This document shows, one piece after another, positions 13,783 to 35,430 of a stretch of 39,094 bases of DNA. The position numbers and the translations under genes are program-made. The DNA is taken from positions 1 through 39,094 of the IMG/VR virus record IMGVR_UViG_3300008263_000006. One strand, 5' to 3'. The notes beneath the pieces were generated by a model that saw only the letters and a program-made list of their open reading frames with translations, had not been told where the DNA came from and searched no databases. How positions within the stretch are numbered: the stretch's first letter is position 1; each line of letters opens with the position of its first letter. Source of the DNA: a virus.

Positions 13783-15576
13783 ATGGCGACCAACGGATTC
13801 TTAAACAATACTCAATTAGATTTTGCATCATATAAACAAAGTCTAAAAACATATTTAAGTCAACAAACTCAATTTAGAGATTATGACTTTGAAGGTTCTA
13901 ACTTGTCAGTCTTGCTAGACTTACTTGCATATAACACATATCACAACGCCATGTATCTAAACATGATTGGCAGTGAGATGTTCTTAGATACCGCGCAGCT
14001 TCGCGAATCAATTATCTCGCATGCGAAAGAATTAAACTATACTCCACGTTCAAGATCTGCTTCTAGAATAGAAGTAGACATTGTTGCTTCCGTAAATAAT
14101 AGCGTGTCGCCAGATACAATAACACTTCCGAATAATTATAGAATTAGTGGTACTGCGAACAACGGGTTAGTCTATAATTTTTATACTAAAGAACCTGTAA
14201 TATTGGAATCATCTAACAGTTATAGTGTTTCTAATGTTTTCTTTTACGAAGGTTCTTTGAAAACAGAAGCATTCTTAGTATCTTCTGCCAACGCACAATT
14301 TGTAATTAATTCTAGCAATGTTGATACTAGCACAGTTTCTGTAACAGTTCAAAAATCATCAACAGAAGCAGTATTTACAACATGGAATAGAAGCGAAGAA
14401 CTATTTAATCTAAATGCAAATAGCGAAGTATTCTTTGTTCAGGGATACAGAGATTTTCAGTATTCGATTACATTTGGCAATGGTGTCGTTGGTAAACAGC
14501 TAACACCAGGAAACATATTGCTTGTAAGCTACATAGAAACTAATGGCGTGGATGCTAATTACACCTCGACATTTTCTACTGTAGAATCTGTAGATATTTT
14601 CCCAGCTAATACATTTTCGCTAGTGTATTCTGGTTCTTCTTATGGCGGAGCATATGCTGAAGATAATGATTCTATTCGTTATAATGCGATTCGTGGATTT
14701 ACTAATCAAAATCGCGCTATTACTGCAGAAGATACAATATCATTGCTTAAAGCTAATTTCCCGTCTATTGAAACTGTAGTCGCGTATGGCGGAGAAGAAG
14801 CCACACCAAAACGCTATGGTAAAATTGTTATCTCGGCGAAACCAGTTGGATCAGAATTATTATCAGAATCTCTAAAGAACGAGATAGTCGATTTTCTATC
14901 TGATAAAACATCATTATCCGTAGAACCACTAATTGTAAATCCAGAGTATTTTTATCTTGATATTGCCTCTCGCGTCAAATACAACATAAATCAAACCACA
15001 AAAACTTATTCTCAGTTAGTATCAAATGTTGTGACTGCAATTACAGCGTTTAATACCAGTTATCTTTCTGATTTCGGTTCGGATTTAAGATTTTCTAAAC
15101 TTTCTGCTGCAATCGATGCCGCTGATGTTTCGATCATTTCTAATGATACACAAGTTAGAATTAGCAAAAGAATTACACCATCTCCTGGCGTAAGTTATTC
15201 AGAAACATGGAGTTTTGAAAATCAACTACATAGTGAAAATGTCAGATATGTTTTACCAATTGGTCACGAACCAATCGTATCTTCGAGCGCGTTCGTTTAT
15301 GATGGTTATACTGCGTATCTACAAGATAATGGTAATGGAGTTTTGCAAGTTTATACTACGATAAATGGTTTGTCAACGATTCTTGCAACAGTTGGATCAG
15401 TAAACTATGATACAGGTGTTATTTCTATAACAGGATTAAACGTAGATTCTTATTCAACAGATAGCATTAAGATTTATGCAAGAACAGAAAATGCTGATAT
15501 AGATACTTTGACTAATAAAATTCTTCTTATTGATGCAGAAGATATTAGCGTTACAATGACTGGAATTAGAATCTAA
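13783..15576 (+). CDS. 6: gp6 baseplate wedge protein (baseplate J-like)
   Basis: The product has 597 residues (T4 gp6: 660). The start is of the gp6 type: LDFASYKQSLKTYLSQQTQF and DYDFEGSNLSVLLDLLAYNT, then AMYLNMIGSEMFLDTAQLRE followed by ARxLxYTPRS-type AKELNYTPRS. In the middle are RRAITAEDY-like NRAITAEDTISLLKANFPSI and VVAYGGEEATPKRYGKIVIS, the Baseplate_J pattern. gp6 forms the ring of dimers that ties wedges together. The last codon overlaps the next ATG (TAATG). Confidence 0.93.
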   Translation: MATNGFLNNTQLDFASYKQSLKTYLSQQTQFRDYDFEGSNLSVLLDLLAYNTYHNAMYLNMIGSEMFLDTAQLRESIISHAKELNYTPRSRSASRIEVDIVASVNNSVSPDTITLPNNYRISGTANNGLVYNFYTKEPVILESSNSYSVSNVFFYEGSLKTEAFLVSSANAQFVINSSNVDTSTVSVTVQKSSTEAVFTTWNRSEELFNLNANSEVFFVQGYRDFQYSITFGNGVVGKQLTPGNILLVSYIETNGVDANYTSTFSTVESVDIFPANTFSLVYSGSSYGGAYAEDNDSIRYNAIRGFTNQNRAITAEDTISLLKANFPSIETVVAYGGEEATPKRYGKIVISAKPVGSELLSESLKNEIVDFLSDKTSLSVEPLIVNPEYFYLDIASRVKYNINQTTKTYSQLVSNVVTAITAFNTSYLSDFGSDLRFSKLSAAIDAADVSIISNDTQVRISKRITPSPGVSYSETWSFENQLHSENVRYVLPIGHEPIVSSSAFVYDGYTAYLQDNGNGVLQVYTTINGLSTILATVGSVNYDTGVISITGLNVDSYSTDSIKIYARTENADIDTLTNKILLIDAEDISVTMTGIRI

Positions 15577-18500
15577 TGAAAGATATTGAGAAATTAATTT
15601 CTCCCTTAATCGAAAGTCAATTTCCTTCAGTTTATCGTGATGAGGGAGCGACGTTTGTTGCTTTCGTAAAAGCATATTTTGAATGGTTAGAACAAACTAA
15701 TGGAGTTGCATATGATTCTCGCCGACTCCCAGAATATCGCGATATCGATACTACCTTAGATAAATTTGTAGACGAATTTAGAAAAAAATATATGCACGGT
15801 ATCCCAAAAGATATTGCTGCAGATAAACGTCTACTACAAAAACACATTAAAGAATTATATTCTTCCAAAGGAACAGAGCGTGGTTTAGAACTGTTGTTCC
15901 GCATATTGTTTAATGAAGATATTAATGTTTATATTCCTGGAGCTGACGTACTTCGCGCTTCTGACGCGCAGTGGTTAGTTCCAAGATACTTAGAATTAGA
16001 ATACAATGTAAATATCGGTTCGTATGTTGGTAAAACAATCACTGGTCGCATATCTGGTGCGACAGCATTCGTAGACGAATATAAAACATTTGTAACTGGT
16101 AACAAGCGCCACGATATTCTTTATATTACTGATATCGTAGGAACATTTGCTGCAAACGAAGAAATCATAAACACAGACGTTATAGATGATCTGGGTATTG
16201 AAGTCACATCTAGCCCAAGAGTACGTGGTTCTTTAATTGGCATTGATGTGCGCGGTAGTTCTACTGGATTTTCTCTTGGCGAAGTTGTTGATGTTTCTGG
16301 TGTCGGTGAAGATGGTCAAGCGATTGTAACGAGCCTTGAAAGTTTGCAGGGTGTTGTTAGTTTTGATATTATAAATGGCGGAACTGGTTTTACTTTGACA
16401 GCATCTGAAACAATTACACCATCAGGTAATGCGCCATCTATCGCTGCTTCTTTTAATATCGGTTCTCTAAGCAATACAAGTACAATTGATCTAACTTCTA
16501 CACCAATTACTAATGCGCTTAGTATTCAAATTAATGCTCCAGCGCCAGCATATACTGCATTTTCAGCGAACGCAGCTGCCGATTGGCTGACTCCGTTTAA
16601 TGGTATTTTTGTTCTAAACACCTATACATATGGCACAATTGCTACATTGACAGACATTAATCCTGGTAAAGGATATAATGCCAATGTTGCAGTATCTGTT
16701 GTTGATAATTTAATTTATCCACTTCGAATCTCTGATGGCGCTGGTGGATTTCTTGGCTATAACGCAAACATTGCTGGCTTTGCTGGTATCGGAGATGGCG
16801 CAGCCAAAACAGTTGCAATTTATAATTCTGGTTTTGGTTATACTAATAATACGACAGTTTCTTTAACTAGCGTTTCTAATTCTTCTCACGTTGCTACAGG
16901 AACAATTAATGCTGTCGGTCAAGGTAAAGGCGAAGGATACTTCAAATCTACTCGCGGTTTCCTAAACTCTGACAAGTATATTCACGACAATTATTATTAC
17001 CAAGAATATTCCTACGAAGTTCAAGCTGTTACCGCATTTAACAAGTATTCTAGCATTCTTCGTGACTTGTGGCACCCAGCTGGTATGGAGAAATTTGGTA
17101 GAACATTAATTCAATCTGTTCCCGTTTCTCGCGGAACCACCCTAGAAGCTTTAATTGAATACCTAGACACTCAGTATCTAACCTCTACTTCTACAACTCT
17201 TACAACTTCTACTGGTATTACAACAAGCAGATTTACAGAAACTGTTGGCGCGACCACAATTGCGACAGAGTATCTCACCACATCTGCATACGGAACTTCG
17301 TTCATAACTAAGCGCGAAACTGCTATTGATACTACGTTTGAGACAGCCATATCGACCTCGACACTTACTGCGTTCTCAACGTTAATTACTACTGCAACTG
17401 CAATTGACACTGCTGTTGGAACAATCTTTTATACAAATACAACGTATACTGGCCAAGAAACCAGAGCAACTGCTACGACTAAGAGTACAGCTACAGTATA
17501 TGATACCAATAGAACAACTACGTTTGCTACTGCGTATGCGACTGGCACATCTAAAACAACTACAACCAGCTATGCTACTTTAGCAGGTGTTTCTGCTACT
17601 AACTTCCAAACATCTGTTGTAACTAACTTTTTTACAACAACTGTATTTGATACAAGTATAACTGCAGATACAACATATGAAACATTTGCCAGCGCCAGCG
17701 GTTTTGTAAATCAGATTAGAGCCATAGAAGATGCTGAGTCAAAAGGATTTACGATAGAAGATTGTGAATTTCTTAACGACGCTCCTCCTGGTGTATGGAC
17801 TTACTATTGTTCTAAAGAAATTACGATTTCTGAAATTACCAAAGTTGCAACATCTAAAAGCACAGGTATCAACTCAAGTTATTCTACCACATATGATACC
17901 GTTTTCAATACAAGTGGTGGAACTCTGGTCAATACAACAATTGACACGACCACGAAATACAATACTGATACTACAATTGATACAACTCGTACTACGAAGT
18001 TTAATACCAGTCTGTCCACAACAACAACGTACGACACAAATACGTTAGTAGATACAGCCATAACAATTGATACTCTACCAGTAACTGCTATTGTTACCAG
18101 CTACTTTACGAATACGACTACCACGTTCAATACGACGACAGTATTCCAAACATCTTCTGTGTTTAACACAACAACTTCATATCAGACAGACTCTGGAGCA
18201 GGTACACTAATTAATACCTCTAAGACCACAGCGACTGATATTTTAACGAATACTAGTAAAGCAACATCAACGGACAGATCCACTAGAACTTCTGGCGTAA
18301 CAACAACTGTATTCTTAACAGCATACGCGACTGCTGTTGCTACTACAACTGCGTATGTAACTTCAACGACCACCAAATATGATACAACCTACAGTACCAT
18401 ATCTGGAACTGGTATTGGTTCAACAACATTCGAAACCAGCAAAGTAACAGCAACTGCTCCTGATACAACTAAAAATACTGAAAAGTTTACTGCTACTGTT

Positions 18501-21500
18501 TACATGACAAATAGATTAACTACTATTGACACTATAAAAATGTCAGGCGGTACATATTATGAAACCAGTATATTGACGGAATTCGCGACGTATTACAATA
18601 CCAAGTTTAAGGATACTACCCGCGATACAACGTTGAATACGGATGTTACTACAGATGTTACTACCTTAACAAATAAACAAACAAATATTACGACCAAATA
18701 TGTAACTTCTAAAACACGTAATATTCAAACATATTTTACAACTGGCGAAGTACTAACCACAGTTGTAACTTCTTATGCAACTGATAAAGATACTTCTAAG
18801 TCGACGGATACATTTAAACAAACTGCGCTTAGTACAAAATATTCAACTGCAGTTGCAACGGAAACAGGTACTTCGAAGTCTACAGACGCTACAACTGAAT
18901 ACTTGGTTGATACAAATTATAGAACTGCCAAGTACACCGATTCAGCATTCGCCACTAATTTCTTAACAGCGACTGCGTTGTATACTTCTACAACGATTGA
19001 CACTAACAAAGCAACTCAAACGTCAAAATCTACTGCATATGGTACTGGTAAAACGACCACGACTGCATACGATACAACAACGACATTTGTCACTGCAACA
19101 AGTAAATCTACGTCATCAGTTTTTGACACTATAACTGCATACGCTACATCGACTAATAGATCTACAACAAGTACATTTAATACGACGACAGCATATGCAA
19201 CAGCTACCAGTAAATCTACGACTTCGGTATTTAACACTACTACCGTATTTGATACAGCAATCGCGACTTCAACAGTGTTTAATACTGACACAGTAATTAA
19301 CACCGATACGCTTTTATTTACTGATACAAATCGTTCTACTAAGCGTCTAACTAACTCGGTTTACGATACCTCGACAGCGTATGCCACGACAACTTCTTAT
19401 ACTACGAAATATGACACGTTGTTTGATACATTTTTTAGCACCGATACTTCAAAGATCACCGAACGCGATACCTCTACAAGTAGAGAAACTTCTGGTTCGA
19501 CAGCAACTAGCAGGATAACTGTCACTGGTTCTGGATTCTTAACATCAACAACATTTAACACGACTTTTGATACTGCTTATCAGACTATTTTCTCAACACA
19601 AACTTCTGCGTTGACAGCAACTAGTAAGTCAACTGACACTGTCGGTGCGACTTCTAAAGCAACAGCAACTTCAAAATCAACGACCACGTTGTTTAATACA
19701 TCTACAATATACGGAACAACTGTAGGAACTGATACTACTGTTAATACGACAAAAGCTACAAGCACAAATATTCTAACAAGCAAAGCAACCGACACATCTA
19801 AAGAAACTTCAAAATCTACTGATACTACGATCTCTACTGTATTTGATACAACAACGACGTATTTGACTCAGATCGGTACTAACAGATTTACTAGTACGTC
19901 AAAAAGCACAACGACTGCATTTAATACAGCTTATGCGACTACAACTGCATATGATACAACTACGACTTTCATAACTGTGTTTGACACTACTACAACGTTT
20001 AATACTACAACAACGTTTAATACTGCGTATGCTACAACGACGGCATTTAATACAACGTATGCGACATCAACCGTGTTTAACACGACTGGCGCTACAAGCA
20101 AAACCACAGATACCAGCAGATCGACCGTGTTTGGTACAACTACGGTATTTAATACATTGTATGCGACATCAACTGTGTTTAACACGACTGGCGCTACAAG
20201 CAAAACCACAGATACGAGTAGATCTACAATATTCGGTACAACCACAACGTTTAATACGTTGTATGCTACAACCACAACTTTTATTACAGCATTTGCTACG
20301 ACGTCGATATTCAATACTTCGTATGCTACGACAACTAATTTTGATACCACACAAGGTACATCAAAAGCAACAGATACATCTAGAACTACTACGTTTGATA
20401 CAACTGGTTCTACAAGTAAATCCACTGACACCAGCCAATCGACAGTATTTAATACCAATAATAGCACGTCTAGAGCAACAGGAACTTCTGGAGGCACAAC
20501 GACTGCGTTTAATACCACGACAGCGTTTGTAACAACATTTGATACTTCTCAAGGAACTTCAAGAGTAACCGAGACTTCGCGTGGAACAACTACTGTGTTT
20601 GCTACAAGTACTGCGTTTGTTACAATATTTGCGACAACAGGTTCAACTTCTGCAGCAACAGCTACGTCAAAATCAACTTCGACTGTGTATGCAACATTTT
20701 ATCTTACAGAATTTTTAGATGGTAAACAATCAGTTTTTGAAGAAACAAGTAGAGACACATCTGCATCTACATCAACTGTGTATAATACAACCACGATATT
20801 TAATACCTCGGGTGATACTTCACAAGGTACATCACGGAACACTGATACTTCTCGTGGAACTACAACTGGATTTGGCACCACGACCGCATTTAATACAGTG
20901 TTCGCAACTAGTGCGACGACTTCCAGAGCAACAGGTACTTCTAGAGGCACAACGACTGCGTTTGATACTACGACTACTTTTATAACTACATTTGATACTT
21001 CTAAAACAACTACGTTTAGTACAACAACAACATTCAGCACAGTATTTGGTACTTCTAGACCTACCACCTTTAGTACAACTACCGCTTATACGACTGCATT
21101 TAACACAAGCAAAGCTACTGATACAACTGTCAGCACTAGTAGGTCAACCGATACAACACAATCGACTTCTAAAGCTACTGATACAACTGTCAGCACTAGT
21201 AAGTCGACGGACACTAACAGAACTACGACATTCGGCACGACCACAGCGTTCAACACAACGTTTGACACTAACAAAGCAACAGATACAACCGTGTCAACTA
21301 GTAAGTCGACGGATACTTCAAGAGCTACAACGTTTGGTACAACAACTGCGTTTAATACAACGTTTGACACTAACAAAGCAACAGATACCATATTATTGAC
21401 TTTGAAAGCTACTGATACAATAATTTCTACTTCTAAAGCTACGTCAACTTCTAAGGCGACAGAAACAGCAGCGTTTACTTCAAAAGCAACAGGTACCTCT

Positions 21501-22775
21501 AAGTCTACAGATACAGTAATTGGTACTTCTAAATCAACTACCAGCGTATTTGATACATCTACTGCGTTTGAAACAGCTTATGATACTAACAAAGCCACCG
21601 CGACCTCGCGCGCGACCGCATACGCAACGACAACTGGATTTGCCACAATATATGCAACGCTAACGACATATGTTAGTGTGTTTGACACAACGACTGCATT
21701 TAATACAGTTTATGCGACAGGTTCAACTTTTGATACTTCGGCTCTAACTGGAACAAGTAAATCAACTACTTCAGTGTTCGATACCACGACTGCGTTTAAC
21801 ACAACGTTTGCGACATCGACTGTGTTTGATACCACTACTGCGTTCCAAACGAATACTTCAAAAGATACAGCTATCTCGACAACTGGTTCTACTAGCAAAT
21901 CGACTTTGACAGTCTTATCAACAAGTACTCAATTTAATACTTTGACTACATTTGCCACAGTCTATAACACTCAGTCACTTTTCTCTACTACTTTCTTGAC
22001 AACGACGAGCAGAGGCACTACTTTTGAGACCACGAAGGGAACATCAAAAACTACGGACACAACAATAAACACTGCTACTATTGTTCAGACTGATTCTGTT
22101 TTCTCGACCGTTTATGCGACCGCTACTGTTTATGGAACAAGCACTGCATTTGCTACAGCGACCAGTATACTAACCGATACTAAGATTGCTACGAATATAG
22201 CGACTGCAACTTCTAAGTCGACCTCGACTGTATTCAATACAGATACTGCTATTGATACCGCTACAACCAAGTCCACCAGTACGGTGTTTGATACTGATAC
22301 TACCAAAGTTACTGCAACTTCTACATCTACTTCTACAGTATTTAATACCGATACGACTAATTCTACTGCCACAAGTAAATCTACTTCATCAGTATTTGAT
22401 ACCACAGTTACAACTGCATTTAATACCGACACAAGTATTTCAACAACTTATGCTACGCAGACTAAGAGCCTAACCACCATCATAACAACATATGATACTG
22501 CTCTAAATACTACAGTTTCTACTAAAGTTGATACTTTAACAAGTAAAAATACAACGAAGAATACATCGTTCTATACAGATACGCTGTTTAATTTGACTGG
22601 AACTGTGTTGAACGCTACACAATATACAACGGCTCGTTCTACTGACCTTAGCACTCAGAAGTCTACATCAACCGCTATAAATACTTCGTCAGCCACTGCT
22701 TATGTAACAGTTGTTGACACCGATACGATTTTTGACACCGTCTATGACACGGTGGTAAATACCGAACCAACATAA
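15576..22775 (+). CDS. Giant baseplate/fibre protein with ~1870-residue Thr dipeptide repeat
   Basis: The product has 2399 residues. About 1-160 match a conserved protein that follows gp6 in many T4-like marine phages: LIESQFPSVYRDEGATFVAF, then AYFEWLEQ, RKKYMHGIPKDI, LYSSKGTERGLELLFRILFN. It takes the T4 gp7 position. About 255-465 hold Gly-rich GxGY modules. About 465-530 (YYYQEYSYEVQ, WHPAGMEKFG) closes the ordered part. From ~531 to the end the chain alternates residue by residue: one position Thr, Phe/Tyr/Val or Lys/Arg, the other Ser, Asp, Asn, Ala, Gly or Thr. A 55-residue interruption with C730 and C745 lies near 706-760, and a FLDG island near 1700-1732. Codons for Thr and Ser vary widely, so the protein pattern is selected. 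It is likely a long beta-structured fibre; function unknown. Confidence 0.85.
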   Translation: MKDIEKLISPLIESQFPSVYRDEGATFVAFVKAYFEWLEQTNGVAYDSRRLPEYRDIDTTLDKFVDEFRKKYMHGIPKDIAADKRLLQKHIKELYSSKGTERGLELLFRILFNEDINVYIPGADVLRASDAQWLVPRYLELEYNVNIGSYVGKTITGRISGATAFVDEYKTFVTGNKRHDILYITDIVGTFAANEEIINTDVIDDLGIEVTSSPRVRGSLIGIDVRGSSTGFSLGEVVDVSGVGEDGQAIVTSLESLQGVVSFDIINGGTGFTLTASETITPSGNAPSIAASFNIGSLSNTSTIDLTSTPITNALSIQINAPAPAYTAFSANAAADWLTPFNGIFVLNTYTYGTIATLTDINPGKGYNANVAVSVVDNLIYPLRISDGAGGFLGYNANIAGFAGIGDGAAKTVAIYNSGFGYTNNTTVSLTSVSNSSHVATGTINAVGQGKGEGYFKSTRGFLNSDKYIHDNYYYQEYSYEVQAVTAFNKYSSILRDLWHPAGMEKFGRTLIQSVPVSRGTTLEALIEYLDTQYLTSTSTTLTTSTGITTSRFTETVGATTIATEYLTTSAYGTSFITKRETAIDTTFETAISTSTLTAFSTLITTATAIDTAVGTIFYTNTTYTGQETRATATTKSTATVYDTNRTTTFATAYATGTSKTTTTSYATLAGVSATNFQTSVVTNFFTTTVFDTSITADTTYETFASASGFVNQIRAIEDAESKGFTIEDCEFLNDAPPGVWTYYCSKEITISEITKVATSKSTGINSSYSTTYDTVFNTSGGTLVNTTIDTTTKYNTDTTIDTTRTTKFNTSLSTTTTYDTNTLVDTAITIDTLPVTAIVTSYFTNTTTTFNTTTVFQTSSVFNTTTSYQTDSGAGTLINTSKTTATDILTNTSKATSTDRSTRTSGVTTTVFLTAYATAVATTTAYVTSTTTKYDTTYSTISGTGIGSTTFETSKVTATAPDTTKNTEKFTATVYMTNRLTTIDTIKMSGGTYYETSILTEFATYYNTKFKDTTRDTTLNTDVTTDVTTLTNKQTNITTKYVTSKTRNIQTYFTTGEVLTTVVTSYATDKDTSKSTDTFKQTALSTKYSTAVATETGTSKSTDATTEYLVDTNYRTAKYTDSAFATNFLTATALYTSTTIDTNKATQTSKSTAYGTGKTTTTAYDTTTTFVTATSKSTSSVFDTITAYATSTNRSTTSTFNTTTAYATATSKSTTSVFNTTTVFDTAIATSTVFNTDTVINTDTLLFTDTNRSTKRLTNSVYDTSTAYATTTSYTTKYDTLFDTFFSTDTSKITERDTSTSRETSGSTATSRITVTGSGFLTSTTFNTTFDTAYQTIFSTQTSALTATSKSTDTVGATSKATATSKSTTTLFNTSTIYGTTVGTDTTVNTTKATSTNILTSKATDTSKETSKSTDTTISTVFDTTTTYLTQIGTNRFTSTSKSTTTAFNTAYATTTAYDTTTTFITVFDTTTTFNTTTTFNTAYATTTAFNTTYATSTVFNTTGATSKTTDTSRSTVFGTTTVFNTLYATSTVFNTTGATSKTTDTSRSTIFGTTTTFNTLYATTTTFITAFATTSIFNTSYATTTNFDTTQGTSKATDTSRTTTFDTTGSTSKSTDTSQSTVFNTNNSTSRATGTSGGTTTAFNTTTAFVTTFDTSQGTSRVTETSRGTTTVFATSTAFVTIFATTGSTSAATATSKSTSTVYATFYLTEFLDGKQSVFEETSRDTSASTSTVYNTTTIFNTSGDTSQGTSRNTDTSRGTTTGFGTTTAFNTVFATSATTSRATGTSRGTTTAFDTTTTFITTFDTSKTTTFSTTTTFSTVFGTSRPTTFSTTTAYTTAFNTSKATDTTVSTSRSTDTTQSTSKATDTTVSTSKSTDTNRTTTFGTTTAFNTTFDTNKATDTTVSTSKSTDTSRATTFGTTTAFNTTFDTNKATDTILLTLKATDTIISTSKATSTSKATETAAFTSKATGTSKSTDTVIGTSKSTTSVFDTSTAFETAYDTNKATATSRATAYATTTGFATIYATLTTYVSVFDTTTAFNTVYATGSTFDTSALTGTSKSTTSVFDTTTAFNTTFATSTVFDTTTAFQTNTSKDTAISTTGSTSKSTLTVLSTSTQFNTLTTFATVYNTQSLFSTTFLTTTSRGTTFETTKGTSKTTDTTINTATIVQTDSVFSTVYATATVYGTSTAFATATSILTDTKIATNIATATSKSTSTVFNTDTAIDTATTKSTSTVFDTDTTKVTATSTSTSTVFNTDTTNSTATSKSTSSVFDTTVTTAFNTDTSISTTYATQTKSLTTIITTYDTALNTTVSTKVDTLTSKNTTKNTSFYTDTLFNLTGTVLNATQYTTARSTDLSTQKSTSTAINTSSATAYVTVVDTDTIFDTVYDTVVNTEPT
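20058..20261 (+). repeat. Two tandem 102-base repeat units
   Basis: Starting at TATGCGACATCAAC (20058) the sequence repeats from 20160 with a few, mostly silent, changes. The unit is 34 residues (YATSTVFNTTGATSKTTDTS and so on). It indicates recent duplication or gene conversion inside the Thr-rich tract. Confidence 0.85.
20673..20771 (+). repeat. FLDG island motif, copy in the giant protein
   Basis: The non-repeat island reads VYATFYLTEFLDGKQSVFEE followed by TSRDTSAST. It matches four copies in the protein at 33460-35094 (consensus Y-x-T-x-Y-[IVL]-T-x-F-[LF]-D-[GA]-x-Q-[ES]). It links the two repeat proteins. Confidence 0.85.
21111..21434 (+). repeat. Nested 60- and 102-base direct repeats
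   Basis: AAAGCTACTGATACAACTGT recurs at 21111 and 21171 (60-base, 20-residue spacing). A 34-residue unit beginning FGTTTAFNTTFDTNKATDT recurs at 21231 and 21333 (102-base spacing). The 102-base period equals that of the separate pair at 20058. Confidence 0.85.
22676..22683 (+). promoter_or_regulatory. Possible late promoter before gp8
   Basis: This is an exact TATAAATA inside the last codons of the giant repeat gene. The expected transcript start near 22689 is about 95 bases before the gp8 ATG. The sequence also encodes part of AINTS, so a chance match is possible. Confidence 0.4.
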
Positions 22776-24512: not shown

Positions 24513-27500
24513 ATGTCAGCTGATATTGCAAATACAACACTAGCGTCGGCACCATACTATGACGACTTTGATGAAACAAAGAAGTTTCATAGAGTACTGT
24601 TTAGACCATCATTCCCAGTTCAGGCTAGAGAATTAACTCAGCTACAGAGTATTCTGCAGAATCAGATCGAACGATTCGGAGATGGTGTATTCAAGCAAGG
24701 TAGTATTATCAAAGGTTGTGCTCCAACCATAATTCCTGACGCTGTGTATGTTGCTGTTCCTGATGCCAATTCTACATTTACTGCTGCGAACACCTCTTAT
24801 GTTGGCGCTATTTTGTATGGCGCTAATTCTGGCGTTCAAGCTAGAATTCTAAAAGGACAAGACGGATTCTCTGCTTCTCCTTCGACGAATCCATCCAAAT
24901 TTTTTGTAAAATATACTTCAACTGGTAAGAATGGTGTTACTGGTTTCCAAGAAGGCGAAACAATAACTGTTTACGGCGAAGATAAATCTTTTCTTGCAAC
25001 ATCAATTGTAACAGTTGCCAATGCCACTAATTTTACTGTTAATAGTCGCGTTAGAGGTGAAACATCAGACGCTCGTGGTCTAATTACAGCTGTAGTTGCC
25101 AATAGTAGCGTAAATGAAATTACTATCACCAACGTAAGAAAAGATTTCTTGGTTGGCGAAACAATTCAGTTGTTATCTAATACTTTAGTAAATACAGCAA
25201 TATCTGACTTAGAACTTAATTTTAACAATACTCTAATAAGCACCACTGTTTTGACAACTCCAGGCGACCAACGCTATACTGCTGTTGGTAATGCTTATGC
25301 TTTAAGTGTTTCAGAAGGTATCGTATATCAAAAAGGTTTCTTCGTAAAAACCGACACACAATTACTAATTCTAAATGATTCTGCAGGTGGTGCTTCTGCT
25401 GCTAATGGTATTATCGTTGGTATGGAAACTACTGAAACTATTGTTGATGAATTTGCTGATTCTTCATTATACGATAATTCTGCAGATTTGAATAATGATG
25501 CAGCTCCTGGTGCGCATCGATTAAAATTACAAACTAATTTTGTTTCTTATGCAAAAACCGCGCTTCCTAATACTGAAGTGTTCTTTGCTGTGGCTGAGTT
25601 TGGTCAAAATAATATTCTAAAGTGGAACAACACTGCACTTGGTGGTGCAGTTGGTCAAGAAATAGCTCAGCGTACTTATGACGAGTCGGGTCACTATACA
25701 TTAAAAGACTTTAGTATTACATCTAAACCATCTGCTAATACTCAAGAATTCTACTATGACATCGGTGCTGGTAAAGCATATGTTCGTGGTAATGCTGTTG
25801 ACTTTAAGTCAAACCAACTATTGACTTCGCGTCGTGGTGTTGACACTGAATCTCCAGTACAACAAATCGTTTCAATGAATTATGGTAGTTACATTAATGT
25901 CGAAGAATTGCGCGGATATTTCCCAGCCGATGAGTCGGCAGATGTAAATCTATATGATTCATTCCAGAATGCTATTACTGCCAGCAAAAATTCAAGTAGT
26001 TCTGCTACTGGTACTGCTATTGGTACAGCTAATATTCGTAATTTGGTTTATGATACTGATAGCGCAGATAAAGGTGCTCCACTAGCACAATACAAAATGT
26101 ATCTATTTAATGTCAAGATGAACGAAAATCAAAACTTTAATAAAGTTCGTTCTATCGTTTATCAAGGCACTGCTAATGCGTTTGCTGACGTTGCTGTTTC
26201 GCAACTCGCTAACTCTGTTTACACTGCTACTATTTCTGCTAATGGTGGTGGCTATGCGAATGGTGAAACTATCACCATTAATGGTGGTCTTGGTGAATCT
26301 GCGACTGCACTTATAACGGTAAACAATGCATCAGGCAATGTCACTTCTATTTCTTTAATTCAGGGTGGTAAATATACTGCCAATCCAACATTGACTGGCG
26401 CTGCTGTTACAGGTGGTTCAGGTACAGGCTTAACTGTAAACTTAACTATCGACGGCTATGTCGATCCTAAGTTAGAAGCTACTGACTACACAGCTCTCGT
26501 ATTTGGTTTAACAAATCGTGCTGTTAGAGATCTTAAAGACGCATCAAATAATTCTAATACTGAGTTCTACTATAATGTTTCTGCCAATGCTTCTCTAGCA
26601 AACAACGGTACTACAACTATTAGCTTAACCGACGGTGGTTCGTTCTTTGGCTTCTCAGATAACACCGATTTTTCTGAAGAAAAAGTAGATATTATTTTGA
26701 CTGGTGCAGCTCTAACAACTGTAGATCTTGATGGTACTGTTTCTGTTGCCAACTCTACAACCACTACGATTACTGGAACTAGCACATTCTTCCAACGTGA
26801 TTTTGTTGTAGGTGAGAAGATTACAGTGGCAGGAAATACTGCAGTAATCGTAAACTCGATCGTAAGCAATACTACGATGACAACAAGAACTGCTCACGGT
26901 GCAGCTGCTGTAGCAAATACCTATGCTCGTTTCCACGAGAAAGGTTCTATTATTAGTTTGGCTACAAGCAACAGAACAATTACACTAAACTCAACTCTAC
27001 AAAGTTTAACTGTTGATCTTGGACCTGACTTTACTGCTTCTGGCGCAACAGCTATTAAAGTTAATGCTTATGCTAGAAAATCTAATGCCAAACCAATAGC
27101 TAAAGAAGTTAAGCGCAATCAGTTAGTTCGTTTTTACAATGGATCCCTAACTGGTACTATTAGCAGTTCTGGAACAACAGTGACTGGTGCTTCTGGAACT
27201 ACATTTAGCACTGACTTTAAGATTGGAAACTATATCCGCGCAAACGGAGAAACAAGAAAAATTGCTTCTACTCCAGGATCGGCTTCTTCATTAGTTGTTG
27301 ATACTGCGTTCTCAACAAATCTATCAGGCGCGACCTATGAGATCGTGCATCCATATGGTTTCAACTTAGGTGTTCCTGACGTATTTAAGATTAATGCGAT
27401 TCGTGAAACTGCTGACGCAGTATCAGATAGCCCACAAGCATTTTCGGATATCAAACAATACTTTACATATGATTTTGGTCAGCGTGATACGCACTATGAC

Positions 27501-29921
27501 CACGCAGTTCTATATCCTAAGTCTACTGCTAATCTTTCAAACTCGTATCTAATCGTTGACTTTGATTGTTTTGCTGCTAATGCTACTCTTGGTAAAGGCT
27601 TTTTCTCAGTAGAATCTTATAACGTAAATGACGCCATCGGCGCAAATACTTCGCAGTATGTAAAAACTTGGGAGATTCCTTCCTACTATTCAGCTACTCG
27701 CGACCGTCGTTTTGATTTGCGCGACTCTATTGACTTCCGTCCATATAGATCCAACACAGCGAACTTAACTTCAAATGCTTCTGCCACAACAATTAATCCT
27801 TCGCCAGGAACAATATTTAATCCTGCTACCACAGATTACAATCCATATCCTGGTCAGAACTTTGAATGTAATTTAACTTATTATCTGCCTCGTCGTGATG
27901 CTGTTGTTCTAACTTCTAAAGGCAATTTTGAGATTGTAGAGGGTGACTCTGCTATTCAGCCAAGAACTCCTAATGCAGAATCTGATGATCAAATGGTAAT
28001 TGCTACTTCTTATATCCCACCATATCCATCATTAACTGTTGCTGAATCTCAATATGTAATGAATGTTCCATATACTATGAACATTTCGCCTATTTCTAAT
28101 AGACGTTATAGAATGAAAGATATTGGTGCACTTGACCAGCGCGTTTCTTCGTTAGAATATTACACAACTCTAACTCGCTTAGAACAAAAAGCAACTCAGC
28201 TGAATATTCCAGACGAAAATGGTGTGGATAGATTTAAGAACGGTTTCTTTGTAGATCCTCTTGATAATCAAAACTTATCAAGATTTAATGACTACGAACA
28301 TACTGTTGTTATCGATCAAACGGAAGGTGTTGCGCGTCCACCTGTATCAGTAGAAACAGTTTCTATTGAAGTAAACAATGCAAATAGCACATCTACTTCG
28401 GTAATTAGAAATACCGCAAACAATATCAGTTATAGCAAAAACTTCATAACTGTTGGATATGATGCAAATACTAAGTTCGCATCTCAAGAATATTCTACAC
28501 GAGAGATATTAATCGATCCTGATGATAAGTATCAAAATGGTAGCGTAGAATTAGATAAAGATAGATTCGCTGATATTGAACAATCAATCGCATATCCGAA
28601 AACATTAAGTGCTAACGAATTAACAAACTACAACAATAGTTATGTTTTCCCAGCCACCAGAACTATTAAATTAATTGCGCGTGGATTAAAACCATTTACT
28701 CGTCACTATATTAGTGTTGATAATGTAGACTATTCTGCGGCTGCGATTCCAGGCGATATCGGATTTGGTGTGCAGAAAATTGCAGCGAATGTTGTAGTTG
28801 ATGGTGTTCAGGGCGAAGAACTATATTCAGATTCAACTGGTGTATTATATGCTATCGCCACGATTCCTGGAAATCTAACGCTAGGAAATCATGTGTTATC
28901 TGTAACTAATGCTGTTGCGCCTTCTGTCTCAGACTCTATCTCAAGCGGAGCATTCGTGGTTGCGTTAGTTGAACAAGTATCTGAGCCACCAGTTGTTGAA
29001 CCACCTCTAGTTCCAAAAACTCCTTTAATTGTTGCTGACTTTGATTATGTTGGTAATTTAGTCGCACAAGAAGGAACTAATCAAATTCTTTCTTTTATTG
29101 ATAGAACAAATCGTGGTGTAGTTGTTCCTGAAGGATCTGAGATTGAGAGACCATCATCTTGGGAATGGACTTTTGTTCAATGTTCAACTGGTTGTGTTGA
29201 GTCGAGTATTGCTACTTCTATCGACCAAAATCCAGAAAATATTACATTTACCTATCCAACTATGATAGAAACAGTTTATGTTAAGCTAAAAGTTACAGGT
29301 ATACATGGTACAGTTTCTGAAGTTGTCAAACCAATACAATTAACAAAATATGAAGAAAAGAGCGATTTAAAATTATCTGTCTATTATCATGTTCCTGGTA
29401 ATAACAATAATTACTATATGTCAAGCGGTTCTACTGCCAAAGTTGTTAAAAATATTACTCTAGATTTTAGAGCAACAATGACAAAAAATAGGGTCTCTGG
29501 TGGTTATGTTACTATTGCAATCGTAGGAAATCAAAGCGGAAGCCTATCAGGAACTAACTTTACAGCTACAAATATAGGAAGCACTGCATCAATTCAAACT
29601 AATTCTGCAATTGGACCACTTGCTAATGCTGATAGAATAGTTGGAATTCGATGGACTAATCCATCAAGCACAACACTAACAATTACAGCAACATATTATA
29701 CTTCTGCTGGTGTTGTGGTAGAATCCGTGCAAAAAACAATTAGCTTTAATAATACTGGTTCTCTTGCTCCCTGCAAGCCATGCGATCCTGCGCAATTATT
29801 TACACCTACTATTGTACAAAATCCTATTAGTGTTTCTACAGGTGTAAGTAATAGCGGTGTCACTTATGTGAGTGCTGATGCTATATTATTTACAGACACT
29901 GCCCGACCACCGTTAAATTAA
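24513..29921 (+). CDS. Large DUF4815-type structural protein with PKD-like domain
   Basis: The product has 1802 residues. The N-terminus (ASAPYYDDFDETKKFHRVLF, then RPSFPVQARELTQLQSILQN) is the hallmark of DUF4815 structural proteins of T4-like phages; these sit where T4 has gp10. Residues about 1000-1250 contain FRPYR-type YSATRDRRFDLRDSIDFRPY, and about 1190-1290 RRYRMKDIGALDQRVSSLEY with a coiled helix after it. A GxGY module lies at ~570-650. About 1500-1615 is a PKD/Ig-like domain (ADFDYVGN...SWEWTF...VYVKLKVTG), and a further beta domain with CKPCDPA near 1750 ends the chain. The likely role is a peripheral baseplate plate or fibre socket. The ribosome site is GGAG. Confidence 0.72.
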   Translation: MSADIANTTLASAPYYDDFDETKKFHRVLFRPSFPVQARELTQLQSILQNQIERFGDGVFKQGSIIKGCAPTIIPDAVYVAVPDANSTFTAANTSYVGAILYGANSGVQARILKGQDGFSASPSTNPSKFFVKYTSTGKNGVTGFQEGETITVYGEDKSFLATSIVTVANATNFTVNSRVRGETSDARGLITAVVANSSVNEITITNVRKDFLVGETIQLLSNTLVNTAISDLELNFNNTLISTTVLTTPGDQRYTAVGNAYALSVSEGIVYQKGFFVKTDTQLLILNDSAGGASAANGIIVGMETTETIVDEFADSSLYDNSADLNNDAAPGAHRLKLQTNFVSYAKTALPNTEVFFAVAEFGQNNILKWNNTALGGAVGQEIAQRTYDESGHYTLKDFSITSKPSANTQEFYYDIGAGKAYVRGNAVDFKSNQLLTSRRGVDTESPVQQIVSMNYGSYINVEELRGYFPADESADVNLYDSFQNAITASKNSSSSATGTAIGTANIRNLVYDTDSADKGAPLAQYKMYLFNVKMNENQNFNKVRSIVYQGTANAFADVAVSQLANSVYTATISANGGGYANGETITINGGLGESATALITVNNASGNVTSISLIQGGKYTANPTLTGAAVTGGSGTGLTVNLTIDGYVDPKLEATDYTALVFGLTNRAVRDLKDASNNSNTEFYYNVSANASLANNGTTTISLTDGGSFFGFSDNTDFSEEKVDIILTGAALTTVDLDGTVSVANSTTTTITGTSTFFQRDFVVGEKITVAGNTAVIVNSIVSNTTMTTRTAHGAAAVANTYARFHEKGSIISLATSNRTITLNSTLQSLTVDLGPDFTASGATAIKVNAYARKSNAKPIAKEVKRNQLVRFYNGSLTGTISSSGTTVTGASGTTFSTDFKIGNYIRANGETRKIASTPGSASSLVVDTAFSTNLSGATYEIVHPYGFNLGVPDVFKINAIRETADAVSDSPQAFSDIKQYFTYDFGQRDTHYDHAVLYPKSTANLSNSYLIVDFDCFAANATLGKGFFSVESYNVNDAIGANTSQYVKTWEIPSYYSATRDRRFDLRDSIDFRPYRSNTANLTSNASATTINPSPGTIFNPATTDYNPYPGQNFECNLTYYLPRRDAVVLTSKGNFEIVEGDSAIQPRTPNAESDDQMVIATSYIPPYPSLTVAESQYVMNVPYTMNISPISNRRYRMKDIGALDQRVSSLEYYTTLTRLEQKATQLNIPDENGVDRFKNGFFVDPLDNQNLSRFNDYEHTVVIDQTEGVARPPVSVETVSIEVNNANSTSTSVIRNTANNISYSKNFITVGYDANTKFASQEYSTREILIDPDDKYQNGSVELDKDRFADIEQSIAYPKTLSANELTNYNNSYVFPATRTIKLIARGLKPFTRHYISVDNVDYSAAAIPGDIGFGVQKIAANVVVDGVQGEELYSDSTGVLYAIATIPGNLTLGNHVLSVTNAVAPSVSDSISSGAFVVALVEQVSEPPVVEPPLVPKTPLIVADFDYVGNLVAQEGTNQILSFIDRTNRGVVVPEGSEIERPSSWEWTFVQCSTGCVESSIATSIDQNPENITFTYPTMIETVYVKLKVTGIHGTVSEVVKPIQLTKYEEKSDLKLSVYYHVPGNNNNYYMSSGSTAKVVKNITLDFRATMTKNRVSGGYVTIAIVGNQSGSLSGTNFTATNIGSTASIQTNSAIGPLANADRIVGIRWTNPSSTTLTITATYYTSAGVVVESVQKTISFNNTGSLAPCKPCDPAQLFTPTIVQNPISVSTGVSNSGVTYVSADAILFTDTARPPLN

Positions 29922-31748: not shown

Positions 31749-33458
31749 ATGGCAATTTCATTCACAAACGTCGCGACTACAGACAATTTTTCGACTTGGC
31801 TGACAAGAACCAACCAAATCGCGAATGCGTTCGTTCAGGTCGTTACGGTAGAATCAAATACTGCTTCTGGTAATGCAGCAGTTAGTGGCTACTTCGTGGC
31901 TAACGGTTTCGTCGGAAACAACATTACTGTGACTGGTTCAGCTGGCGGAAACTTAACTGTTTCTTCTGCTAACTTAGTAATTGCTTCAAACTCTATTTTG
32001 TCTGCTGTCGGTTCGCTCGCTGTTAAGGGTGCGATGACTATTGACACTCTAAGCAGTGTCAATACTGGTACTGCGGCAAACGCTACACATTATCTATTGG
32101 CTGCTAATAGCGCCAACGGTAGTAGCTGGTACTATGCAGCTGTTCCAACTTCCTTCTCAGGAAACTCTAACTTTGACTCAGGAACTTTGTTTGTTGATTC
32201 AGTAAACAACAGAGTCGGTGTAAACAATACAACTCCTGATGCTGCTTTGACTGTAACTGGTACTGCTAATATTTCTGGTAACGTTGCTATCGGTGGCGGT
32301 CTAATAACCAGCACAAATAACGCTTTCCAAGCTAACGCTACATTCTCTGATAGAATTACCGTATCTAATTTTGCTACATTCTCAAATAGCATCACAGTTA
32401 CAAACACCGCAACTTTCTCAAATACAATTACTGTTTCTGGTAATGTTATTTTCGGAACCACGAGAATCACTGCTAATGGTGGTGTTGGTACTGCTGGTCA
32501 AGTTCTAACTTCTGGCGCAGGGACTGGAAATGTGTATTGGTCTAGCGCAGCTGCTGGTACTATAACAAACATTGCTTCTGGCGACGGTTTAACTGGCGGA
32601 CCAATTACTTCAACTGGTACTTTATCAGTTCTAGCAGGCTCTGGTATTATTGCTAACTCTAGTGGTTTATTTGTAAATGCGACTGCTATTGCGGTTGGTA
32701 CTTTACCGATCACTCGTGGTGGTACGGGAACTTCTACTGCAACTGGTACTGGTTCAGTAGTTCTTTCTGCTTCTCCTTCGTTTACTGGTTCGATTAATGC
32801 GCAAACTCTAAACGTTGGTAACACTAACATCTCTGGTAATCTAAATCTTGATGGATATGCAAATATCGTATCTACTGCTAACGTCGGTGGTGCTGTAAAT
32901 CTAAGAAGCACACTTGCTGTTAATGGTGCGGTAACAATTGTTAATACCATGGCGGTTGGTAATACAACTTTAACTGGAACACTTAGCGTTTCTGGTAATG
33001 TCGCAACTGGTAATGTTGTTACAACTGGTAATAACACAACGACTGGTACGCTAACAATTGCTAATGGAATTGTATTAACTTCTAATTCTTCTGTTATTGG
33101 TATGGAAGAATCGTTGACTGTTGCGCTTTCAGATGAAACTACTAGTATTACAACTGGTGTTGCAAAAATAACATTAAGAGCGCCTTATGCTTGGACTCTA
33201 ACAAGAATACCTCGCGCTTCTTTATCTTCTGCTTCTGTATCTGGAATCCCGACTGTTGATATTAACGTCAACGGAAATTCTATATTAAGCACTAAACTCA
33301 CCATCGACGAAAACGAAAAGACCAGCACTACTGCAGCTACTGCAGCTGCGCTTTCTTCTACTAGCATTGCCGACGATGCTGAAATTACAATGGACGTCGA
33401 TGTTGCTGGATCTGCCGCAAAAGGGCTAAAAGTAACTCTGTATTACAAACGAGCTTGA
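31749..33458 (+). CDS. Tail-fibre-like structural protein
   Basis: The product has 569 residues. The N-terminus (TDNFSTWLTRTNQIANAF) is followed by Gly/Asn/Thr-rich repeats of the type VTGTANISGNVAIGGG and NRVGVNNTTPDAALTVTG, which are common in phage fibres built from beta-helices. The middle has GDGLTGGPITSTGTLSV and LPITRGGTGTSTATG. The C-terminal ~120 residues form a separate compact domain (MEESLTVALSDETTSITTG, LRAPYAWTLTRIP, VDINVNGNSILSTKLTIDEN, TSIADDAEITMDVDVAGS) seen in many unrelated phage structural proteins. That domain is a candidate for receptor contact or fibre-tip trimerisation. Confidence 0.7.
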   Translation: MAISFTNVATTDNFSTWLTRTNQIANAFVQVVTVESNTASGNAAVSGYFVANGFVGNNITVTGSAGGNLTVSSANLVIASNSILSAVGSLAVKGAMTIDTLSSVNTGTAANATHYLLAANSANGSSWYYAAVPTSFSGNSNFDSGTLFVDSVNNRVGVNNTTPDAALTVTGTANISGNVAIGGGLITSTNNAFQANATFSDRITVSNFATFSNSITVTNTATFSNTITVSGNVIFGTTRITANGGVGTAGQVLTSGAGTGNVYWSSAAAGTITNIASGDGLTGGPITSTGTLSVLAGSGIIANSSGLFVNATAIAVGTLPITRGGTGTSTATGTGSVVLSASPSFTGSINAQTLNVGNTNISGNLNLDGYANIVSTANVGGAVNLRSTLAVNGAVTIVNTMAVGNTTLTGTLSVSGNVATGNVVTTGNNTTTGTLTIANGIVLTSNSSVIGMEESLTVALSDETTSITTGVAKITLRAPYAWTLTRIPRASLSSASVSGIPTVDINVNGNSILSTKLTIDENEKTSTTAATAAALSSTSIADDAEITMDVDVAGSAAKGLKVTLYYKRA

Positions 33459-33459
33459 C

Positions 33460-35094
33460 ATGGGTGGTTTTTTACTCAATTCGTACATAGTTAGAATTGC
33501 TACGAACGAGGAGTCTCGAGATACAACCACGGCATATAATACAGAATTAGTTACATTTTATGTAAGCGGATTTGATACGACGTTTTTAACAAATAATCAA
33601 ACAAGCAAAACAACTACATTTAATACAACATTTAATACAACGTTTGAAACCTCAAACGAAGGTTCTACAACTACAACATACGATACATTCTATATTACAG
33701 CATTCTTAGATGGTGCCCAAGAACAGTATCAAGAAACATCCAAATCAGTAAGTAGAAGCACTTTAAGTGGAACTTCAAGATTAACTGGTACTGTCTCAGA
33801 AACAAACACAATAACAGACACTAGTAAAATTACTTCTAAAAATACAGACACTACTACTACAACATTATTTAATACAATTACCGTGTTTGCTTCAACGTAT
33901 GATACTAGTAGATCTACAAATACCTCTAGAAATACAAATACTGCATACACCACAGTGTTTGATACTTCGACCGCGTTTGCTACTAACACAGCATATTTGA
34001 CGGTATTTAATACTGCATTTCAAACATCGAATGAAGTTTCTACGACAACTTTGTATGACACCATTTATATTACAGCATTCTTAGATGGTGCCCAAGAAAT
34101 CTATCAAGAAACATCCAAATCAGCAAGTAGAAGCACCTTGAGCGGAACTTCAAAAAATACAGCTACTAGCAGAACAACATTGTTTGACACAAATACTGTA
34201 TATGGCACAACAACAACATTTACAACTTATGCCGATACTCTAACTATATTTAATACAAATTTTGCGGTTTCCACAACTACCACGTATGATACGGTTTATG
34301 TTACAGCATTCTTAGATGGCAAGCAAGAAATCTATCAAGACACATCAACAGAAGTCAGTAGAAGTACAGGAACAGGTTCAAGTTTATCGACAAGCGCATC
34401 AACATTAACAGAAAAAGATACTTCTAGGTCTACAGATACTTCTAAGTCGACGGAAACATCCAGAACAACCATATTTGATACAGCTACAGTGTATGCTACA
34501 ACATATGATACTAATAGATCTACTAGTAGTTCTACAAGCAAAACAACAGATACAAGCCAATTAACTGCTACTTCGGTGGCCACTATAAAGTCCACCAGTA
34601 CAGTATTTGACACAACAACCGCATTTCAAACATCGAATGAATTTTCTACGACAACTTTGTATAACAGCGTTTATATTACAGTATTCTTCGATGCTGGCCA
34701 AGAAGAATCTCGAGAAACATTCAAATCAGCAAGTAGAAGCACCCTAACTGGTACTTCAAAATCAACTGGTACTTCTGGGTTGACCTTGACGAGCACTTCA
34801 ACCACATATTCTACATTGTTCGGTACTTCCACTGTTTTTAGCACGTTATTTAATACAACTACGGTGTTTGCTACGAAATTCGATACAAGCAAATCAACCA
34901 CAAACTCCACTTCAAAAACAACAACGTACAATACATCGTATGATACTATTTTTGCAACTGGAGCTAGTTTATCTAAATCAACAATACGCGGAACATCAAA
35001 AACAACGAGCACGCTTTACAACACCATCGTTGGAACTATTGTTACAACAGAAATCGATGGCGACACGCAACAATATACTAGCGAACTTCAATAA
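33460..35094 (+). CDS. Second Thr dipeptide repeat protein with four FLDG islands
   Basis: The product has 544 residues. A short N-terminus (MGGFLLNSYIVRIATNEESR) is followed by the same alternating Thr-x pattern as the C-terminal part of the giant protein (for example TSKTTTFNTTFNTTFETS). Four ~38-residue islands interrupt it, each with Y-x-T-x-Y-[IV]-T-x-F-[LF]-D-[GA]-x-Q-E and then E/D-T-x-x-x-x-SRST. The C-terminus ends GTIVTTEIDGDTQQYTSELQ. It has no family known to me. It lies between fibre-type genes, one base after the preceding stop and with no strong ribosome site, so coupled translation is likely. It may pair with, or be an accessory to, the giant protein. Confidence 0.8.
   Translation: MGGFLLNSYIVRIATNEESRDTTTAYNTELVTFYVSGFDTTFLTNNQTSKTTTFNTTFNTTFETSNEGSTTTTYDTFYITAFLDGAQEQYQETSKSVSRSTLSGTSRLTGTVSETNTITDTSKITSKNTDTTTTTLFNTITVFASTYDTSRSTNTSRNTNTAYTTVFDTSTAFATNTAYLTVFNTAFQTSNEVSTTTLYDTIYITAFLDGAQEIYQETSKSASRSTLSGTSKNTATSRTTLFDTNTVYGTTTTFTTYADTLTIFNTNFAVSTTTTYDTVYVTAFLDGKQEIYQDTSTEVSRSTGTGSSLSTSASTLTEKDTSRSTDTSKSTETSRTTIFDTATVYATTYDTNRSTSSSTSKTTDTSQLTATSVATIKSTSTVFDTTTAFQTSNEFSTTTLYNSVYITVFFDAGQEESRETFKSASRSTLTGTSKSTGTSGLTLTSTSTTYSTLFGTSTVFSTLFNTTTVFATKFDTSKSTTNSTSKTTTYNTSYDTIFATGASLSKSTIRGTSKTTSTLYNTIVGTIVTTEIDGDTQQYTSELQ
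33664..33777 (+). repeat. FLDG island copy 1
   Basis: This 38-codon unit reads TYDTFYITAFLDGAQEQYQE followed by TSKSVSRSTLSGTS. It is nearly identical at the DNA level to copy 2, including ACAGCATTCTTAGATGGTGC. Confidence 0.9.
34039..34152 (+). repeat. FLDG island copy 2
   Basis: This 38-codon unit reads LYDTIYITAFLDGAQEIYQE followed by TSKSASRSTLSGTS. It has the same length as copies 1 and 4 and is the closest match to copy 1. Confidence 0.9.
34270..34380 (+). repeat. FLDG island copy 3
   Basis: This 37-codon unit reads TYDTVYVTAFLDGKQEIYQD followed by TSTEVSRSTGTGS. The DGKQ form is shared with the copy in the giant protein at 20673-20771. Confidence 0.88.
34645..34758 (+). repeat. FLDG island copy 4
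   Basis: This 38-codon unit reads LYNSVYITVFFDAGQEESRE followed by TFKSASRSTLTGTS. It is the most divergent of the four, but its flanks (QTSNEFSTTT) match those of copy 2 (QTSNEVSTTT). Confidence 0.88.
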
Positions 35095-35103
35095 GGCTTA
35101 CTT

Positions 35104-35430
35104 ATGGCAACCAAATTAAATCTATTCATTGACCAAGGCGCTGACTTCTCTACGACTATTGAAGTAGCAGACGAAGCAGGAGCACCACTAAATCTAACGA
35201 CTTACACAGGTCGTTCGCAGATGCGCAAGCACTATACTTCTACAACCTATAATTCATTTAATGTAACAGGCAATGCCAGTGGTGTAATTACTATTTCTAT
35301 GAATGCTGCTACAAGCGCAAATATTGCTAGTGGTCGTTATGTATGGGATCTAGAATTAGTTTCCTCAGGCAATGTCGTCTCGAGAATTGTTGAAGGCATT
35401 GTTACTATTAACCCTGAAGTTACGAGATAA
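35104..35430 (+). CDS. Small conserved tail-fibre-region protein
   Basis: The product has 108 residues and is all-beta in appearance: LNLFIDQGADFSTTIEVADE, then NLTTYTGRSQMRKHYTST, ISMNAATSANIASGRYVWDL and a VEGIVTINPEV end. I recall nearly the same architecture in many aquatic phages next to fibre genes, usually annotated as hypothetical structural proteins. The Ig-like or BppU-like strand order suggests an adaptor in the fibre or baseplate periphery. That role is inference. Confidence 0.65.
   Translation: MATKLNLFIDQGADFSTTIEVADEAGAPLNLTTYTGRSQMRKHYTSTTYNSFNVTGNASGVITISMNAATSANIASGRYVWDLELVSSGNVVSRIVEGIVTINPEVTR

What the first reader, a model, noticed from the sequence alone, without database searches (positions are those of the whole stretch)
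33460..35094. A second, separate Thr-dipeptide protein 11 kb away
The 544-residue product uses the same alternating vocabulary (SK-ST, DT, NT, VF, TF) but lacks the baseplate N-terminus, and it starts one base after a fibre gene. Two unlinked genes with the same rare pattern suggest a two-component fibre system or a spare cassette for recombination.
Basis: partly seen in the sequence, partly recalled or inferred. Interest (0 to 1): 0.78.

Follow-up and report, generated by a model that had tools for sequence, protein, structure and literature searches.

The report
Threonine-patterned fibre-tip gene sharing cassettes
A freshwater T4-like phage carries a short gene, directly behind a tail-fibre gene, made of the same threonine-alternating sequence that forms most of its giant baseplate protein; in related phages pieces of this sequence have moved between unlinked genes, so it looks like an interchangeable building material for the phage's attachment parts.

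Summary
Window 33460-35094 encodes a 544-aa protein, 30% Thr, with a real two-residue register, starting one base after a 569-aa fibre gene and lacking the baseplate N-terminus of the 2399-aa gene (BIG). The gene (SMALL) is real: it sits in the same position in 11 IMG/VR records (4 alleles: 544, 520, 314, 289 aa), and aligned alleles give dN/dS 0.11-0.42.

A fixed BIG-SMALL partnership is not supported. SMALL tracks the fibre gene: three records with BIG lack fibre and SMALL together, and in a fourth the same slot, one base after a diverged fibre, holds an unrelated 166-aa protein. The recombination idea is supported in relatives. Window SMALL shares 450-560-nt tracts (76-80% DNA identity) with BIG genes of two other phages. 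Fourfold sites there are 65-79% identical against 34-47% in core baseplate genes of the more distant one. The tracts beat all 200 synonymous-codon permutations. Window SMALL and window BIG show no such recent exchange. A third Thr-dipeptide gene behind another fibre joins the exchange.

Best reading: SMALL is a replaceable fibre-tip or extension protein built from a cassette pool shared with the baseplate protein. Structure is unresolved (AlphaFold2 pLDDT 26).

The parts
33460..35094 (+). SMALL: 544-aa Thr-dipeptide protein (the finding)
   Evidence: ORF and translation; conserved slot in 11 records; dN/dS 0.11-0.42 in aligned relatives
33460..33495 (+). invariant N-terminal cap MGGFLLNSYIVR
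   Evidence: identical in all four SMALL alleles
35020..35091 (+). near-invariant C-terminal cap NTIVGTIVTTEIDGDTQQYTSELQ
   Evidence: conserved in all four alleles; 93% DNA identity to G001 over 72 nt
33609..34162 (+). cassette tract shared with the BIG gene of G005 (77% DNA identity over 561 nt)
34042..34499 (+). cassette tract shared with the BIG gene of G006 (76% over 462 nt)
34472..34923 (+). cassette tract shared with the BIG gene of G005 (80% over 456 nt)
31749..33458 (+). fibre gene (569 aa), partner of SMALL by synteny
   Evidence: always 1 nt upstream of SMALL; 88-92% aa identity between relatives while SMALL interior is replaced
35104..35430 (+). 108-aa protein, PHROG 3304 'L-shaped tail fiber protein assembly' / phrog_1084, 9 nt downstream of SMALL
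15576..22775 (+). BIG: 2399-aa gp7-like baseplate wedge protein; aa 1-530 baseplate domain, the rest Thr-dipeptide
   Evidence: Pfam PF23786, phrog_17744; translation
20027..21413 (+). replaced centre of BIG, flanked on both sides by segments conserved at 77-85% DNA identity
20027..20577 (+). part of the BIG centre shared with the THIRD gene of G022 (86.8% DNA identity over 551 nt)
24513..29921 (+). VrlC-like protein (DUF4815), boundary of the host recognition cluster known in related T4-like phages
   Evidence: PMC7029224

Best explanation
SMALL is a translated virion-type protein that occupies a replaceable fibre-tip or fibre-extension slot: it is made with, and probably assembled onto, the end of the fibre encoded one base upstream. 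Its short invariant N- and C-terminal caps would fix it in place, and the variable Thr-dipeptide interior would form a beta-structured shaft or receptor-contacting surface. Its interior belongs to a pool of cassettes shared with the Thr-dipeptide part of the gp7-like baseplate wedge protein (BIG) and with a third gene (THIRD) behind another fibre. Recombination between phages, and sometimes within one phage, moves 0.1-0.55-kb blocks among these loci. Shown: gene reality, slot conservation, replacement of the interior, ectopic sharing of DNA tracts. Inferred: location at the fibre tip, beta structure, a role in host attachment.
For: Slot: in 11 records SMALL starts exactly 1 nt after the fibre stop and, in the ten where its end is present, ends 9 nt before the 108-aa gene. 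Fibre and SMALL are lost together in G022, G021 and G026, and G019 has another gene at the same 1-nt position behind a diverged fibre. Replacement: SMALL window versus G001 is 43-52% identical with fourfold sites at chance (35%), while the fibre is 92% and gp8 91% with fourfold sites at 73-75%. Ectopic exchange: fourfold identity in shared tracts is 69-79% for window SMALL versus G005 BIG, against 34-47% in gp6, gp8 and the BIG N-terminus of the same two phages (59% in the VrlC-like gene). Observed scores exceed all 200 synonymous-codon permutations for window SMALL-G005 BIG (418 vs 245), window SMALL-G006 BIG (318 vs 186), G006 SMALL-own BIG (329 vs 215), window BIG-G022 THIRD (665 vs 377) and G019 BIG-own THIRD (405 vs 184). 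Translation: dN/dS 0.11-0.42. Not an assembly accident: the 520-aa allele is identical in 4 records, the 289-aa allele is 99.4% or more identical in 4 records (a fifth is truncated), and window BIG is 99.94% identical in G008. Adhesin analogy: THIRD has an N-domain that in isolates often follows tail-fibre genes and carries Gly-rich, Ig-like or Thr-dipeptide C-terminal parts.
Against: No structural support: AlphaFold2 mean pLDDT is 25.6 and there is no PDB or Pfam match. No proteomics shows SMALL in virions. Slot logic is synteny, not proof of contact with the fibre. Within the window itself SMALL and BIG share no recent DNA. Only four SMALL alleles are known. The 166-aa alternative occupant in G019 has no significant family or fold match.
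Confidence: 0.55

Rival explanations
1. SMALL and BIG are two interacting components of one fibre or baseplate appendage, sharing the repeat so that they can co-fold or pack.
For: Same register and vocabulary. Wherever SMALL is seen and the contig reaches BIG, BIG is present (8 of 8 records).
Against: BIG occurs without SMALL in G022, G021, G026 and G019. SMALL co-varies with the fibre gene instead.
Confidence: 0.12
2. SMALL is mainly a donor cassette (reservoir) for diversifying the baseplate protein by gene conversion, its own product being secondary.
For: Tracts shared with BIG in other phages and, in G006, within the same genome. The centre of BIG is where orthologues are replaced.
Against: Constraint on its own product (dN/dS 0.11-0.42), invariant caps, fixed position and spacing behind a fibre. 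No window-internal exchange. Direction of transfer is unknown.
Confidence: 0.12
3. SMALL is an intrinsically disordered, Ser/Thr-rich, possibly glycosylated tether (mucin-like), where only composition and register matter.
For: AlphaFold2 gives no structure. Ser+Thr 44%. Vibrio versions were annotated as 'cell wall mannoprotein' by depositors.
Against: Alternation with regularly placed aromatic or Lys/Arg residues suggests beta strands. Conserved caps and conserved DGxQE-type modules.
Confidence: 0.16
4. A fast-evolving non-functional repeat, or an assembly artefact.
For: Low complexity; some related BIG genes have broken frames.
Against: Same alleles in independent records, purifying selection, invariant ends.
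Confidence: 0.05

Closest known systems
T2-type gp38 tail-fibre tip adhesin (PP01, S16)
   Same: Small gene tied to a fibre gene; conserved N-terminal attachment and variable receptor part; mosaic variation; gp38 sits at the tip of gp37 (PMC12892980). That gene 38 lies directly downstream of gene 37 is from my own knowledge.
   Different: gp38 has poly-glycine II helices; SMALL is a Thr-dipeptide protein with no sequence match and no known receptor.
Host recognition cluster between VrlC and gp14 in pelagimyophages and cyanomyophages (PMC7029224)
   Same: Same genome position: fibre genes downstream of VrlC, highly variable, host-recognition role proposed.
   Different: Here the variable material is also shared with the baseplate wedge gene outside the cluster.
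Baseplate wedge protein of Stenotrophomonas phage DLP_6 (AMQ65900.1)
   Same: gp7-like N-terminus followed by a Thr-dipeptide C-terminal part with the same register.
   Different: Only this gene was examined there; no short stand-alone copy established.
phrog_30374 (unknown function), e.g. Vibrio phage 6E35.1a QZI87587.1
   Same: Matches the THIRD gene, including its Thr-dipeptide tail.
   Different: Carries an N-domain that SMALL lacks.

Membership tests
gp38-type fibre-tip adhesin | gene placed directly behind a fibre gene | tested here: met
   1-nt spacing in 11 records
gp38-type fibre-tip adhesin | conserved end(s) with hypervariable interior | tested here: met
   caps invariant, interior replaced
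gp38-type fibre-tip adhesin | Gly-rich PGII sandwich domain | tested here: not met
   sequence is Thr/Ser-rich, Gly 4%; no PDB match
gp38-type fibre-tip adhesin | binding to fibre tip and receptor | not testable with these tools
   needs virion biochemistry
gp7-like baseplate wedge protein (PF23786 / phrog_17744) | baseplate N-terminal domain | tested here: not met
   SMALL has no hit, BIG does
Inter-locus cassette exchange system | DNA tracts shared between non-orthologous loci above a synonymous-codon null | tested here: met
Inter-locus cassette exchange system | exchange between SMALL and BIG of the same genome | tested here: inconclusive
   yes in G006, marginal in G001, no in window and G015
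Inter-locus cassette exchange system | dedicated recombinase or reverse transcriptase (as in DGR) | not tested
   no such search was made; only a 39-kb fragment is held

The most novel reading that the evidence does not exclude
A phage lineage keeps one protein 'alphabet', the Thr-dipeptide repeat, in three unlinked virion genes (baseplate wedge, fibre tip, second fibre tip) and diversifies all three by ectopic gene conversion from this distributed pool, with the short stand-alone gene acting as an expressed reservoir.
Probability: 0.2. Interest if true: 0.75.

Novelty: new variant of a known kind. Interest (0 to 1): 0.52.

Why it matters
Mosaic exchange of fibre-tip genes is well known, but here the exchanged material also sits inside a baseplate wedge protein 10 kb away, so baseplate and fibre could draw variation from one pool. 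It also gives a testable function to a class of uncharacterised Thr-patterned phage proteins found in isolates (Stenotrophomonas DLP_6, large Vibrio T4-like phages) and metagenomes.

Tried and rejected
AlphaFold2 of SMALL with four aligned alleles gave pLDDT 25.6, unusable. The single-sequence model of the G019 slot protein (all-beta, pLDDT 54) found no significant fold match. No relative of SMALL in the phage collection or in GTDB genomes. PDB searches gave nothing meaningful. Literature searches found no description of this repeat. A search for a contig continuing past the window's right end found none, so the THIRD gene of this very phage was not seen. Rejected: chance or composition as source of the pattern; protein-level similarity alone as source of the shared tracts; assembly artefact.

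Full report
What is there. The window is a fragment of a T4-like phage (IMG/VR record, 39,094 nt) with the order gp25, gp6, a gp7-like wedge gene, gp8, a VrlC-like gene (DUF4815), a 533-aa gene, a 569-aa fibre, the 544-aa gene of the finding, a 108-aa gene and further fibre-like genes. I call the 2399-aa wedge gene BIG and the 544-aa gene SMALL. BIG has a baseplate domain (aa 1-530; PF23786, phrog_17744) followed by about 1870 aa of Thr-dipeptide sequence. SMALL consists of this sequence alone.

Is the pattern real? Yes. In SMALL, Thr-Thr pairs at even spacing outnumber odd spacing 1.84-fold; 200 shuffles gave a mean of 1.00 and a maximum of 1.12. BIG gives 1.67, and the SMALL alleles of relatives 1.49-1.58. 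The register slips at a few places. SMALL and BIG of the window also align better than block-shuffled controls (739 against at most 597), which suggests old common descent of the material. At DNA level they show no recent exchange: 51 bits, null maximum 64.

Is SMALL a gene? In 11 records it starts exactly one base after the stop of the fibre gene, and in the ten with its 3' end it finishes nine bases before the 108-aa gene. There are four alleles of 544, 520, 314 and 289 aa. The 520-aa allele is identical in four records, and the 289-aa allele is at least 99.4% identical in four. dN/dS in alignable stretches is 0.11-0.42. The first 12 residues and the last ~25 are nearly invariant while the interior varies in length and sequence.

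The interior is replaced, not merely diverged. Window against G001: fibre 92% and gp8 91% identical with fourfold sites at 73-75%, but SMALL has fourfold sites at 35%, the chance level for its codon usage. BIG shows the same in its centre (window 20027-21413): the Thr regions on both sides are 77-85% identical in DNA to G006 or G001, while the centre aligns poorly with G006 (36% fourfold identity) and partly with G001 (55%).

Where do the replacements come from? Window SMALL shares 561 nt (77%) and 456 nt (80%) with the BIG gene of G005, and 462 nt (76%) with the BIG gene of G006. In the G005 tracts 69-79% of fourfold sites are identical, whereas gp8, gp6 and the BIG N-terminus of the same two phages show 34-47% (the VrlC-like gene 59%). 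Permuting synonymous codons in the subject (200 times) never reached the observed score (418 against 245; 318 against 186). Similar tracts link window BIG with a third Thr gene of G022 (551 nt, 86.8%), and join loci inside one record: G006 SMALL-BIG (549 nt, 74%) and G019 BIG-THIRD (408 nt, 82%). Tracts tested for the window's own pair, for window SMALL against BIG of G001 and G015, and for the G015 SMALL-BIG pair were at null level. Exchange between loci is therefore shown for the lineage; direction, timing and mechanism are not. One caution: the G022 contig ends exactly where the G009 contig (window-type BIG) ends, so this junction deserves long reads.

The third gene. THIRD (128 aa in G001, 1202 aa in G015 and G012, 1115 aa in G019) has an N-domain MPLxxSGTISL...YYRGG. 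It follows an S74-chaperone fibre gene two bases downstream in G015. In isolates this N-domain often follows tail-fibre genes and is continued by Gly-rich (Ochrobactrum OC, Burkholderia JC1, Itty13, ST4), Ig-like-looking (DLP_6, X1, ANB28) or Thr-dipeptide (Vibrio 6E35.1a, F86, QD01) sequence. The Vibrio genes are not next to a fibre gene. The nature of the Gly-rich and Ig-like parts is judged by eye.

Which partner does SMALL have? In G022, G021 and G026, which have a shorter 997-aa BIG, the fibre and SMALL are both missing between the 534-aa and the 108-aa gene. In G019 a diverged fibre (35% identity) is followed, again after one base, by an unrelated 166-aa protein. So SMALL follows the fibre, and the slot is replaceable. 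This contradicts a fixed BIG-SMALL pair.

Most likely working. By position, replaceability and variability, SMALL resembles the T2-type gp38 tip adhesin (PMC12892980) and lies in the region that related T4-like phages use as host recognition cluster, between VrlC and gp14 (PMC7029224). It is not a member of the gp38 family by sequence. I infer that it extends or caps the fibre and contributes to attachment, with the Thr-dipeptide part as an interchangeable shaft or contact surface. Structure prediction failed, so a disordered or glycosylated tether remains possible.

Novelty. Recombining tip genes are known. The sharing of one repeat material between the baseplate wedge gene and two fibre-associated genes was not found in the papers searched, a limited open-access library. 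I rate it a new variant of a known kind.

Noticed in passing
L212, L213, L227, L232, L240 upstream of the 108-aa homologue: In other phages the slot before the 108-aa gene holds one or two adjacent genes with a different repetitive vocabulary (QQPY / ARQP / AQxPF repeats), a possible parallel to the Thr-dipeptide design.
   Followed up: no
window 17680-17900; L009:8180-8300; L046:6380-6470; L061:12120-12330: BIG frame breaks at or near a Cys-containing insert domain in three records: a short tandem duplication in G005, an 88-nt deletion in G007 against the otherwise 98-100% identical window, and a shift in G019. Natural inactivation or assembly error is undecided.
   Followed up: partly
L121:2384-5992 (G015 THIRD) and L041:7995-11861 (DLP_6): Globular-looking domains are inserted into the Thr-dipeptide stretches, as if the repeat were a shaft carrying binding domains.
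   Followed up: no
G022 (L128:1-1822) and G009 (L125:1-5002) contig ends: Two records from different metagenomes end at the same sequence inside the shared cassette, suggesting an assembly-graph junction at a tract present in several genes.
   Followed up: partly
L147:6178-7638 (G019 fibre): The diverged fibre that precedes the alternative slot protein ends in Pfam PF24243 (Phage tail tip domain); the window fibre has no Pfam match.
   Followed up: partly
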